NCBI RefSeq assembly: GCF_001870225.1
Contig: NZ_CP017675.1
Coordinates: 701,930 to 765,929 of the forward strand
DNA: 64,000 nt
Reading direction: 5' to 3'
From: Gloeomargarita lithophora Alchichica-D10
GTDB taxonomy: Bacteria; Cyanobacteriota; Cyanobacteriia; Gloeomargaritales; Gloeomargaritaceae
Made by a program: the position numbers and the translations under genes. Positions 4,150 through 56,751 of this stretch are shown piece after piece (position 1 is the stretch's first letter; every line of letters starts with the position of its first letter). Below the pieces are notes generated by a model. That model saw nothing but the letters and a program-made list of their open reading frames with translations. It was not told where the DNA came from and searched no databases.

Positions 4150-4667
4150 TGGTTCTCAAAATCAACCTTCTTGATAGTCACAAGCACATCCGATTAAGCT
4201 TTTACTGTGGGGAAAAGAGTTTAGATAATTACATACATAAGCAAGCGTCTCAGGATGTCAAAAAACGAGTCTCAACTGTATTTGTTTTAACTGATGATCC
4301 TCAGATGAACGTTTTGGCTTACTATACGCTCTCTGCTTACACTGTCAATGTGACAGCTTTGGAGGAAAGTTTTGCTAAGCAATTACCCCGATACCCAGTA
4401 TTACCTGCAACACTATTAGGTCGTCTGGCGGTTGATAATGACCACAAAGGTAAGCGGTTGGGTGAACTGTTATTGATAGATGCTCTTAAAAAGTCTTTAG
4501 ATACAGCGATACAAGTTGCATCTTTAGCTGTCATTGCCGAAGCGTTGGATGAACGAGCCTTGAGCTTTTATATAAAGTACGGATTTAGACAATTTAATCA
4601 GGAGCCTATGAAGCTGTATTTGCCTATGAAGTCTATTGAAGAGCTTTGCCAAAATCTTGGCATCTAG
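4149..4667 (+). CDS. GNAT acetyltransferase toxin (TacT/AtaT-type)
   Basis: 172 residues with the Gcn5-related N-acetyltransferase fold. The acetyl-CoA pyrophosphate loop is seen as DHKGKRLGELLL (about 97-108), preceded by the beta-strand LLGRLAVD, and the C-terminal FYIKYGFRQF (about 137-146) carries the tyrosine typical of this toxin family. TacT/AtaT toxins acetylate the amino group of charged tRNAs and stop translation. Placement directly after a DUF1778 gene with a one-base overlap makes the toxin reading strong. Which tRNA is targeted cannot be read from the sequence. Confidence 0.9.
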   Translation: MVLKINLLDSHKHIRLSFYCGEKSLDNYIHKQASQDVKKRVSTVFVLTDDPQMNVLAYYTLSAYTVNVTALEESFAKQLPRYPVLPATLLGRLAVDNDHKGKRLGELLLIDALKKSLDTAIQVASLAVIAEALDERALSFYIKYGFRQFNQEPMKLYLPMKSIEELCQNLGI

Positions 4668-4675
4668 GACATCTC

Positions 4676-4797
4676 TATAGCAATCCCACCCAATTAGCGT
4701 TAGCCTGCGTGCCGTAGGCATACAGAAATTCTGAAGAACCAATGCGGGGCTACGCCCTGCGACCCATATTATGTCAACCTTTGCGTGTTTAGCTATA
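4676..4797 (-). repeat. dispersed TIR element, mosaic of families A and B
   Basis: This begins TATAGCAAT (4676-4684, the end of family A elements) and finishes TTAGCTATA (4789-4797, the end of family B elements). The interior, read on the minus strand, has the shared GC-rich core (GGGTCGCAGGGC then GCCCCGCATTGG) and the CTACGGCACGCAGGCTAACG segment also seen at 27576-27604. The two different ends suggest recombination between related elements. Confidence 0.7.
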
Positions 4798-4905
4798 GCA
4801 GAAAGTCATCTCGCTGGAATGCTGGTATTACCGAGAACCATACACCGCAGGTGCTTCTCAGACGGGGGCAAACCCCAGCGACCTATTTTGAGAAGTATCT
4901 GCAAG
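4798..4905 (-). repeat. dispersed repeat, degraded family C copy
   Basis: Read on the minus strand it contains the family C landmarks: AAAATAGGTCGC, a GGGG...CCCC core, GGTTCTCGGTAATACCAGCA and TTCCAGCGAGATGACTTTC, closely matching 24943-25044 and 10920-11040. The terminal GGACACCTC is not preserved. It fills the gap between the GNAT toxin and the downstream minus-strand gene. Confidence 0.6.
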
Positions 4906-9924: not shown

Positions 9925-9975
9925 TGGTAGTGGTTTTCCAGAATCTTTCTCTGCCAGGATTGCTCTAAGAAATAT

Positions 9976-10118
9976 GTAGCAATCCTAATTGAATCCTGAA
10001 CAGCGGTCGCAGGGGCACCACCCCCGTCCTTGGTTCTTCTGAATCTCTGCATTCCAGCGATGAGATTTATGGCTACGCCACGCAGGCTATCGGTTGGTTC
10101 AAATAAATAGAGGTGTCC
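9976..10118 (+). repeat. dispersed element, family A left end joined to family C right end
   Basis: It begins GTAGCAATCCTAATTGAA like family A and ends AATAGAGGTGTCC (10106-10118) like family C. It contains the core GCGGTCGCAGGGGCACCACC and the TTCCAGCGATGAGATT segment. Its last base abuts the stop codon of the split DUF5615 gene, so the whole space between the two genes is repeat. Confidence 0.75.
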
Positions 10119-10575
10119 TATTGATAAACGATAATTCCAGTGCGGTTGAGTTCAATGTAGTTGTGGGTTTCAAATAGCGTGATTAACTGCTGGAGATTTT
10201 GAGAGAATAATACCTCAAGCTCAGCATTTTTTATATTCCCTGTAGCAACAACCAGTAACTTGTAGGGTTGTTTTTGAAGTAGGAATAACTCAACAAAATC
10301 GGCATCTTTTGTAATAACAATGCGCTGGTCTTGGAGCGAAAGCTGATTAATGAATGAGTCTATAGCTAAACACGTAAAGGTTGACATAATAACATGGGTC
10401 GCAGGGCACCGCCCCGCATTGGTTTTCCGAAATCTTGAGACGACAACCTTACTCTACTTAGCTATAGTGTTAGATTATGTTGGGGCAAATCACGGGTATG
10501 TAAGGTGTCATACCCTGCGGATTGGAGAAACCGAGCAAGGCGCATGGGCAGTTGGGCATCTACCAAAAACTTCAT
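10118..10575 (-). pseudogene. DUF5615 PIN-like toxin gene split by a family B element
   Basis: The gene starts at ATG 10575 (MKFLVDAQLPMRLARFL) and overlaps the DUF433 stop as ATGA. After 39 codons the frame meets a stop made at the left edge of a repeat element (10361-10466). The remainder (DSFINQLSLQDQRIVITKDADFVE to TGIIVYQ) resumes beyond it. Removing the element with one TA rejoins the halves in frame, giving the usual DUF5615 order: VDAQLP with the first metal Asp, then TKDADF with the second. As it stands the N-terminal Asp and the C-terminal half are separate, so the PIN-like nuclease is very probably dead. An ATG within the element (10387) could start the C-terminal piece alone. Confidence 0.88.
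10361..10466 (-). mobile_element. 106-bp family B MITE-like element inside the toxin gene
   Basis: The ends are imperfect inverted repeats: TATAGCTAAACACG...AAGGTTG at the left and, read inward from the right, TATAGCTAAGTAGAG...AAGGTTG. The flanking gene reads through perfectly if one TA is kept, which implies a TA target duplication as in IS630/Tc1-mariner relatives. There is no coding capacity, so movement would need a transposase from elsewhere. A second copy is at 24840-24939. Confidence 0.85.
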
Positions 10576-11192: not shown

Positions 11193-11363
11193 CTAAGTGG
11201 CAAGAATTTATTATACCCCTTGGGACTGGTTGTTCACCACGCCAGAACTACCCTTATATTTTGGGGTAGCCGTTCCAGCGGTGCCGGAAAAATTTGCGTG
11301 GTAGTGCCCCGGCGACCGATTTTTAGAGGTGTCTTTCATATCAATTTTAGCCGTGTCCAGCGA

Positions 11364-24714: not shown

Positions 24715-24833
24715 GGGCACCTCTATTAATTGAGAATTAGCGGTCGCAGGGGGGCACCCCCGCCCTTGTTTCTCCGTAATCTCTGCATTCCAGCGATAAG
24801 ATTTTTGGTTGGTTCAAATAAATAGAGATGTCC
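24715..24833 (+). repeat. 119-bp family C element
   Basis: It opens GGGCACCTCTATT (24715-24727) and closes AATAGAGATGTCC (24821-24833), an imperfect terminal inverted repeat. The interior has GCGGTCGCAGGGGGGCACCC, TTCCAGCGATAAGATT and GGTTGGTTCAAATAAAT. It is the cleanest family C copy in the window and the first of three elements in a row after polA. Confidence 0.8.
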
Positions 24834-24839
24834 ATAAGA

Positions 24840-24939
24840 TATAGCTAAACACGCAAAGGTTGACATAATATGGGTCGCAGGGCGCAGCCCACGGGTTCCC
24901 CAGCATCTTGAGGCGACAACCTTGCCCTACTTAGCTATA
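24840..24939 (+). repeat. 100-bp family B element
   Basis: It begins TATAGCTAAACACGCAAAGG and ends CTACTTAGCTATA (24927-24939), with CGACAACCTTG inside the right end. It closely matches the element inside the DUF5615 gene and starts six bases after the preceding family C copy. Confidence 0.82.
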
Positions 24940-24942
24940 CTT

Positions 24943-25044
24943 CTAAAAATAGGTCGCAGGGGTACCGTCCCCGTCCCTGGTTCTCGGTAATATCTGCATT
25001 CCAGCCAGATAACTTTCTGCTGGTTGAAATAAATAAAGGTGTCC
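24943..25044 (+). repeat. family C element lacking its left terminus
   Basis: AAAAATAGGTCGCAGGGG, GGTTCTCGGTAATATCTGCA, TTCCAGCCAGATAACTTTC and the right end AAATAAAGGTGTCC match other C copies. The left GGACACCTC is missing. The remaining 170 bp up to the CRR6 gene show no gene or clear repeat. Confidence 0.7.
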
Positions 25045-27502: not shown

Positions 27503-27624
27503 TATAGCAATCCTAATTGAATTTAGAACAGCGGTCGCAGGGGCACCGCCCCCGTACTTGGTTCTGTGGAGTTTCTGTATGCCTACGGCACGCAGGCTAA
27601 CGCAAATCGTGTCATATTGCTATA
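27503..27624 (+). repeat. 122-bp family A element
   Basis: The ends are TATAGCAAT (27503-27511) and ATTGCTATA (27616-27624), an exact 9-bp terminal inverted repeat with TA at both borders. The interior has CCTAATTGAATTTAGAACAGC, GGTCGCAGGGGCACCGCCCC and ATGCCTACGGCACGCAGGC. It is the best family A copy in the window. Confidence 0.82.
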
Positions 27625-31744: not shown

Positions 31745-31784
31745 CCCTTTGACAGGGAATAGTGATCAAGACACCGCTAGGAAA

Positions 31785-31885
31785 TTGCCAATAAGCGGTC
31801 GTGGGGTCGTAGGCTCCGGGCTTGGTTCTTCTGAATTTCTGTTTACAAATCCGGTAAGATTGCCATAGCAATTCTAATTGAATTT
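31785..31885 (+). repeat. family A fragments
   Basis: ATTGCCAATAAGCGGTCG, CTTGGTTCTTCTGAATTTCTG and AAGATTGCCATAGC (to about 31868) form a decayed A copy, followed by a second left-end fragment AGCAATTCTAATTGAATTTAG. They abut the full copies at 31890-32113. Confidence 0.6.
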
Positions 31886-31889
31886 AGAA

Positions 31890-32012
31890 TATAGCAATCC
31901 TAATTGAATTTTGAACAGCGGTCGCAGGGGCACCGCCCCCGGACTTGGTTCTTCTGAATATCTGTTCGCTAAATGGCTTTGCCACGCAAGCTATCGAGTG
32001 GGATTGCTGTTA
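31890..32012 (+). repeat. family A element, forward copy
   Basis: TATAGCAATCCTAATTGAAT opens the copy (from 31890). The core is GCGGTCGCAGGGGCACCGCC and the right end is GGGATTGCTGTTATA with a three-base change in the terminal repeat. It lies head to tail with the next, inverted copy. Confidence 0.75.
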
Positions 32013-32113
32013 TATAGCAATATGACACGAGTTACGAACGGAAATTCCGCAGAACCAAGGGCGGGGGATGCCCCCCTGCGACCGCTGTTCTAAATTCAAA
32101 TAAGATTGCTATA
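32013..32113 (-). repeat. family A element, inverted copy
   Basis: TATAGCAAT (32013-32021) and ATTGCTATA (32105-32113) are exact inverted ends. The core reads GCGGTCGCAGGGGGGCATCC on the minus strand. Together with the forward copy it makes a large inverted repeat that could fold as one long hairpin. No gene lies between cpcT and 32225. Confidence 0.78.
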
Positions 32114-50421: not shown

Positions 50422-50440
50422 TTTGCATGGGATTTTTGTG

Positions 50441-50574
50441 AGATTGCTATATCTACTTGAACCAACTGATAGCCTGCGTGGCGTAGCCATAAATCCCATC
50501 GCTGGAAAGCAGAGATTATGGAGAACCAATGGCGGCGGGGGGTGCCCCCCTGCGACCTATTTTAAGAGGTGTCC
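50441..50574 (-). repeat. dispersed element, family C end with family A-like other end
   Basis: Read on the minus strand it starts GGACACCTCTTAAAATAGG, has the core GTCGCAGGGGGGCACCCC, TTCCAGCGATGGG, the CTACGCCACGCAGGC segment and ends near ATATAGCAATC. It fills the gap between the flavodoxin gene and tRNA-Leu. Confidence 0.7.
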
Positions 50575-56359: not shown

Positions 56360-56589
56360 TGATGCACTCCAAATTAGGGAATTAACTCATGGAATTAACT
56401 AGCAATTCTTTCGCCCTGTAATCAACAGGAGCCATGCCAAAATTCTGCTTGAATTACCGGTTGCAATTCAAGGGTGATTTCACCAAACCCCATTTCCCTC
56501 ATCCAGAGCCGCTGTAGGGGAAAATTGCACGGGTAGCCTAACCGGATTTGAGACACAATATCTGACGCATCTGTACCTCGCAGAATTTA
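56360..56589 (-). other. expression platform region of the riboswitch leader
   Basis: No reading frame. It holds CTTGAATT (56448-56455) pairing with AATTCAAG (56465-56472) around a 9-nt loop, which on the minus strand is followed by a T-containing stretch (CAGAATTTTGG) and could be a weak terminator. This is the place to look for the switching step between the aptamer and DUF1636. Confidence 0.4.
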
Positions 56590-56715
56590 GGACAACACCG
56601 GCGGGCATCCTGACTCAGGAATTGACGGGCAATTCCCTTACAGTTGCGGGACAGCGGTGGATTTGCACCACACTTTCCCCGTTATCTGGCTGGGCTGACC
56701 CCCCAACCAACCGGT
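56590..56715 (-). promoter_or_regulatory. cobalamin riboswitch upstream of DUF1636-cobW
   Basis: On the minus strand: GGGGAAAGTGTGGTGCAAATC, CACCGCTGTCCCGCAACTGT, TCAGGATGCCCGCCGG. These are the conserved core blocks of the adenosyl/aquocobalamin aptamer in the right order and spacing, including the B12-box CCGC(T)GTCCCGCAACTGT and the closing GCCCGCCGG. Such leaders usually switch genes off when B12 is high. The downstream pair is DUF1636 and CobW, fitting cobalt handling. Confidence 0.93.
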
Positions 56716-56751
56716 CTTTATACTTTAATGCAGAATGAACCCTGGTGCCAG

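What the first reader, a model, noticed from the sequence alone, without database searches (positions are those of the whole stretch)
24715..25044. Four related families of short inverted-repeat elements, with mosaic copies sharing one GC-rich core
At least a dozen copies occur. Family A (ends TATAGCAAT, e.g. 27503-27624), B (ends TATAGCTAA, 10361-10466, 24840-24939) and C (ends GGACACCTCTATT, 24715-24833) have different termini but share a GCGGTCGCAGGGG...CCCC hairpin core. Copies at 4676-4797 and 9976-10118 have one end from each of two families, so ends and cores appear to be swapped. None codes for protein, so they depend on a transposase elsewhere or are MITE-like relics.
Basis: partly seen in the sequence, partly recalled or inferred. 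Interest (0 to 1): 0.7.

Follow-up and report, generated by a model that had tools for sequence, protein, structure and literature searches.

The report
Transposon-derived repeats sharing one hairpin core
The window belongs to a cyanobacterium (genus Gloeomargarita) carrying roughly 580 tiny "passenger" transposons that match three different transposases (two IS630-type, one IS5-type) yet share one GC-rich hairpin core, which suggests that such passengers keep a core and exchange their mobile ends by recombination.

Summary
The repeats are real. They are non-autonomous transposons (MITEs), about 190 per Mb, or some 580 in the 3.05 Mb genome. Families A (TATAGCAAT) and B (TATAGCTAA) have IS630-type ends. 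Insertions nested in other copies become ungapped when the element plus one TA is removed, so TA is duplicated. Family C, and its sister D (24837-25044), have GGRCACCTCTA ends; C shows a 4-bp duplication (29/56 copies, 1.9 expected). Full-length transposons with matching ends were found: an IS630 for A in this genome, an IS630 for B in two relatives, and a ~20-copy IS5 for C in one relative. The shared core (GGTCGCAGGGG-N5-CCCC..TGGTTCT) is present in all three systems, and between other IS630-like ends in another cyanobacterial family. A/C hybrids are common (14 and 15 of the two reciprocal types), but none of 29 has a 4-bp duplication, so they look like recombination products, not mobile chimeras. 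One "mosaic" (4676-4797) is an A/B hybrid inside a C/D element. No reproducible orientation bias or strong covariation supports an RNA function.

The parts
4667..4899 (-). C/D-type element (tip GGACATCTC at 4667, other end GCGACCTATTTTGAGAAGTATC at 4878-4899) interrupted by the hybrid below
   Evidence: inverted-repeat matches I6, I7, I8 and I12
4676..4797 (-). A/B hybrid: A end TATAGCAATCCC at 4676, B end TTAGCTATA at 4797, joined at the core
   Evidence: (I4, I6, I9)
9975..10118 (+). A-left / C-right hybrid with a GGCTACGCCACGCAGGCTA palindrome module in the right arm
10361..10466 (+). family B element, one of 26 identical copies listed in the genome
10919..11040 (+). A-left / C-right hybrid
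11298..11333 (-). left-end fragment of a D element, between two tRNA genes
   Evidence: (D6)
24715..24833 (+). family C element, flanked by the 4-bp duplication ATAA
   Evidence: L061
24837..25044 (+). family D element (C-type ends, different left arm); its left end, now degenerate, is split by the B insertion
24840..24939 (+). family B element inserted at a TA in the left end of the D element
   Evidence: (D7, D9)
27503..27624 (+). family A element, 122 bp
31769..31867 (+). C-left / A-right hybrid, degenerate
   Evidence: (D4)
31890..32012 (+). family A element
32013..32113 (-). family A element, 101-bp form, in inverse orientation
   Evidence: (I2)
50440..50574 (-). D element whose C-right end is joined to an A end (GATTGCTATATCTACTTGAACC)
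   Evidence: (I1)

Best explanation
These are several MITE families mobilised in trans by three transposases. A uses an IS630-family transposase with TATAGCAATCC ends, B a different IS630-family transposase with TATAGCTAA ends, and C and D an IS5-family transposase with GGRCACCTCTA ends. Cut-and-paste insertion duplicates TA (A, B) or 4 bp (C, D). All carry the same ~35-48 bp core with a GC-rich hairpin. Because the core is shared, recombination between two elements at the core swaps a left half of one family with a right half of another. Nested insertion brings cores close together and should make this easier. Most hybrids stay where they were made and do not move as units. Over longer times the same process, or capture of a core between new ends, could give new MITE families with new ends around an old core. 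Shown: the families, their target duplications, the matching full-length transposons, the shared core, and hybrids without duplications. Inferred: trans-mobilisation, recombination at the core as the cause of hybrids, and end replacement as the origin of the shared core.
For: A and B: nested copies (L049, L274, L039, L011, L029, L256) restore a C or D element with no gap at the junction when the element plus one TA is removed. C: 29/56 copies have a 4-bp duplication, 1.9 expected by re-pairing flanks. Partner of A: IS630-family element in this genome with ends TATAGCAATCCTA, itself inserted at a TA in a C-type end; relatives' copies have ends like their own A elements. Partner of C: 1243-bp IS5-family element in G002, about 20 intact copies, 13 of 15 complete copies with a 4-bp duplication, each end matching one end of C. 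Partner of B: IS630-family elements in G002 and G004 whose two ends match the two ends of B. Hybrids: 14 A/C and 15 C/A, 0/29 with a 4-bp duplication, Fisher p = 3e-7 against CC. Core in a further MITE family with other ends.
Against: No transposition was observed. The IS5 for C and an IS630 with B ends were not found in this genome, so movement of B and C here depends on a lost, masked or unseen source. Reciprocal partners of individual hybrids were not paired up. Clean empty sites between species were not obtained, because gene order is too scrambled. About half of the C copies lack a duplication.
Confidence: 0.83

Rival explanations
1. The core is the functional unit: a conserved RNA or DNA hairpin (terminator, mRNA stabiliser or protein-binding site) kept by selection, with the transposon ends a delivery device.
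For: The core is more constant than the arms between species and families. One stem pair switches CG/GC together (85/98 paired, 52 expected). The core occurs in another cyanobacterial family with other ends.
Against: Only one pair covaries; the other four are nearly invariant. No Rfam match of note. Apparent orientation bias in the first sample (37:7) vanished in a second sample (19:20) and in a relative (19:23). Different elements sit at different places downstream of polA in three species.
Confidence: 0.12
2. Hybrid elements are themselves mobile: mixed ends are cut by one transposase or by two acting together, so the hybrids spread as families.
For: Several C-left/A-right hybrids of the same 119-bp architecture have unique flanks on both sides.
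Against: 0 of 29 hybrids have a 4-bp duplication; the A and C transposases belong to different families that make different target duplications; the two reciprocal types are equally frequent, as reciprocal recombination predicts.
Confidence: 0.08
3. The core similarity is convergent: GC-rich hairpins are common in cyanobacterial repeats and only look alike.
For: Similar hairpins with less flanking identity occur in other cyanobacteria (L118 and L123; L407 and L425).
Against: The unpaired sequence around the stem (GGTCGCAG and TGGTTCT) is shared as well, invariant or nearly so in 13 sequences from different families and lineages; note that six of the seven lineage picks were found by a pattern containing these letters.
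Confidence: 0.05

Closest known systems
Bacterial MITEs in general (review PMC10969869), including cyanobacterial ones such as Nezha (cited there)
   Same: 50-500 bp, terminal inverted repeats, no transposase, high copy number, matched to insertion sequences
   Different: Here one internal core is shared by MITEs of three transposase systems from two families, and reciprocal hybrids are common
IS630/Tc1/mariner family, e.g. ISY100 of Synechocystis (PMC2170065)
   Same: Insertion at TA with TA duplicated; matching autonomous elements carry the IS630-type DDE domain
   Different: A and B carry no transposase; only their ends match
IS5 family (NCBIfam transpos_IS5_4)
   Same: Ends and 4-bp duplication of family C match those of an IS5-family element in the relative G002
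   Different: C and D carry no transposase; no such transposase was found in this genome
GTAG- and CGTC-tagged REPs (PMC3733652)
   Same: Short GC-rich palindromes in high copy, between genes
   Different: No GTAG or CGTC tag next to the core hairpin; ends and duplications are of DDE-transposon type

Membership tests
MITE | short (about 50-500 bp) with terminal inverted repeats | tested here: met
   about 100-190 bp with matching ends
MITE | target-site duplication | tested here: met
   TA for A and B by nested sites; 4 bp for C
MITE | high copy number, mostly between genes | tested here: met
   164 core hits in 864 kb; 13 of these inside predicted ORFs
MITE | no own transposase, ends match an autonomous element | tested here: met
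   IS630 for A and B, IS5 for C
MITE | mobilised in trans by that transposase | not testable with these tools
   needs a transposition assay
IS630-derived (A, B) | TA target duplication | tested here: met
   nested cases; L093
IS630-derived (A, B) | ends like an IS630-family element with DDE_3 domain | tested here: met
   L093, L219, L220 for A; L227, L228 for B
IS5-derived (C, D) | ends and 4-bp duplication like an IS5-family element | tested here: met
   L162:14265-15507 and copies; C and D copies with C-type ends
REP (GTAG/CGTC) | GTAG or CGTC tag at the foot of the hairpin | tested here: not met
   core consensus has neither next to the stem
Known structured RNA | match to an Rfam family | tested here: not met

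The most novel reading that the evidence does not exclude
The core is a portable module that outlives its transposon ends: successive MITE families in cyanobacteria, driven by unrelated transposases, are built around it because it aids spread (for example by promoting recombination or template switching, or by making insertions tolerable).
Probability: 0.2. Interest if true: 0.65.

Novelty: new variant of a known kind. Interest (0 to 1): 0.42.

Why it matters
How MITE families get their ends, and why their insides often do not match any transposon, is an open question (my own knowledge of the field). Here one core is found between ends that belong to two IS630 subgroups and one IS5 group in the same genome, with both reciprocal hybrid types. 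That makes "end replacement around a kept core" directly testable. It also points to a possible source of the strong gene-order scrambling seen between two relatives that are 95% identical over the polA region.

Tried and rejected
Function at fixed gene positions: orientation bias in sample 1 (37 same, 7 opposite, p = 5e-6) looked striking but failed in sample 2 (19:20) and in G002 (19:23), so it was rejected. Structured RNA: one covarying pair only, single-sequence folds mostly unremarkable (z about -1.2 to -3.1), no Rfam match of note. RNAalifold in the Python box gave no structure. Interspecies empty sites: G002 and G004 are too rearranged; of about nine block junctions in L168 most hold an element or IS, but so may most intergenic regions, so this was not used as proof. 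Viral contigs: no core match. No paper on repeats of Gloeomargarita was found; a search for MITEs sharing internal sequence found nothing relevant, so novelty is judged on a limited library.

Full report
What was checked. The window is bases 701930-765929 of a single 3,049,282-bp contig. One same-genus relative, G002, has the length of record OV696605.1, named a Gloeomargaritales cyanobacterium. Genome searches with A, B and C gave 75, 44 and 54 match rows with only 40 candidates scored each. A profile of the shared core gave 87 hits in 464 kb and 77 in a second 400 kb taken at regular spacing, about 190 per Mb or some 580 in the genome, around 2% of its DNA.

Anatomy. Typing both ends of 186 non-redundant elements gives AA 61, CC 56, BB 36, CA 15, AC 14 and four others. 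A starts TATAGCAATCC and ends ATTGCTATA. B starts TATAGCTAAACACG and ends CTTAGCTATA. C starts GGGCACCTCTATWAATTG and ends AAATAAATAGAGGTGTCC. D has C-type ends but the left arm GGACACCTCTAAAAATA. All hold the core GGTCGCAGGGG-N5-CCCC...TGGTTCT, whose unpaired flanks are invariant or nearly so in 13 diverse sequences (some of these were picked up by a pattern that contains those letters). Between this genome and G002 the 101-bp form of A keeps its ends and its core better than its arms.

Target duplications. A and B begin and end with TATAGC...GCTATA. Where they sit inside another element, removing the element plus one TA restores the host element without a gap at the junction, e.g. 48 of 49 positions in L049 and 40 of 42 in L274. 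C has exact 4-bp duplications in 29 of 56 copies against 1.9 expected from shuffled flanks, mostly A/T-rich (C here includes D).

Partners. IS630-type transposases (DDE_3) occur three times in this genome. One (L093) has the ends of A and is inserted at a TA in a C-type end, so its TA duplication can be read directly. It is split over two overlapping frames matching the two halves of the IS630 model. Relatives G002 and G004 have the same element, with ends that resemble their own A elements. Relatives without the A elements (G001, G003, G006, G007) lack this transposase; the incomplete G005 has A elements but no hit. For C, a 1243-bp IS5-family element in G002 (L162:14265-15507; NCBIfam IS5_4, 270 bits) has GGGCACCTCTATTTATTC and GGGCACCTCTATTAATTG ends, each matching one end of C; 13 of 15 complete copies carry a 4-bp duplication. 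It was not found in this genome. For B, IS630-type elements in G002 and G004 (L227, L228) have two unlike ends that match the two unlike ends of B. None with these ends was found in this genome, although B has 26 identical copies here.

Hybrids. The two reciprocal types are equally common (14 A/C, 15 C/A) and none of the 29 has a 4-bp duplication, against 29/56 for C (Fisher p = 3e-7). Hybrids therefore did not land as units by the C pathway, and the A pathway should need TATAGC-type sequence at both ends. Recombination at the shared core is the simplest cause (inference). Other mosaics are nested insertions: the finding's own region is a C element, then a D element whose left end was split by a B insertion; 4676-4797 is an A/B hybrid inside a C/D element. 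An IS630 element and A elements inserted into the TA next to the C tip produce the tip-plus-A junctions seen.

How far the core goes. The core is abundant in four of seven genomes of the genus. In a different family it is abundant in two genomes of one genus, with single or few copies elsewhere; 14 of 390 cyanobacterial genomes had a match. In the assembly named SM2_1_8 it sits between other IS630-like ends (TATAGCTGTTTTG / TATAGTCATTTTAATT). These genomes are partly metagenome bins, so single copies may be contamination.

Function of the core. I looked for signs that it acts as an RNA or as a regulatory site. One stem pair covaries and four are nearly invariant. There is no Rfam match of note, and the orientation bias did not replicate. 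The core may simply persist because it is the region where elements recombine; a positive role is possible but unproven.

Verdict. Ordinary MITEs by mechanism, with an unusual modular organisation: one core, ends of three transposases from two families, and reciprocal hybrids that are most likely recombinants.

Noticed in passing
L031-L060: Family B has 26 identical 106-bp copies but no transposase with B-type ends was found in this genome: a recent burst with a missing source.
   Followed up: partly
L168 (G002) against G004: Two relatives 95% identical over a 6.4-kb polA segment share gene order only in blocks of about 1-5 kb; most block ends carry a MITE or an IS.
   Followed up: partly
window 9975-10118; L003, L007, L099: Small palindromic modules (GGCTACGCCACGC, GCCTACGGCACGC) recur at fixed places in the arms of A and C elements and vary in number.
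   Followed up: no
L094:19620-19900, L165:16224, L162:8420: A further insert in the core (AGAAGCACCTGCGGTGTATGGTTCT) recurs in this genome and in G002, as if a smaller element had entered the core.
   Followed up: no
L118, L123 (G031, another family): MITEs with A-type ends TATAGCAATCCT and a different G-rich hairpin inside.
   Followed up: no
L168:6490-6950 (G002): C-type ends around an interior without the shared core; one copy holds a B insertion at a TA.
   Followed up: partly
L168:3282-4389 (G002): IS4-family element in several copies, starting at AGAAGTGTTGAAAGG.
   Followed up: no
L012, L020, L080, L097: Runs of N (withheld stretches) lie right next to some elements in the genome as held.
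   Followed up: no
window 56583-56730: Cobalamin riboswitch on the minus strand (Rfam RF00174, 60.8 bits).
   Followed up: no
window 11298-11333: A D-element fragment lies between tRNA-Ser and tRNA-Glu genes.
   Followed up: no
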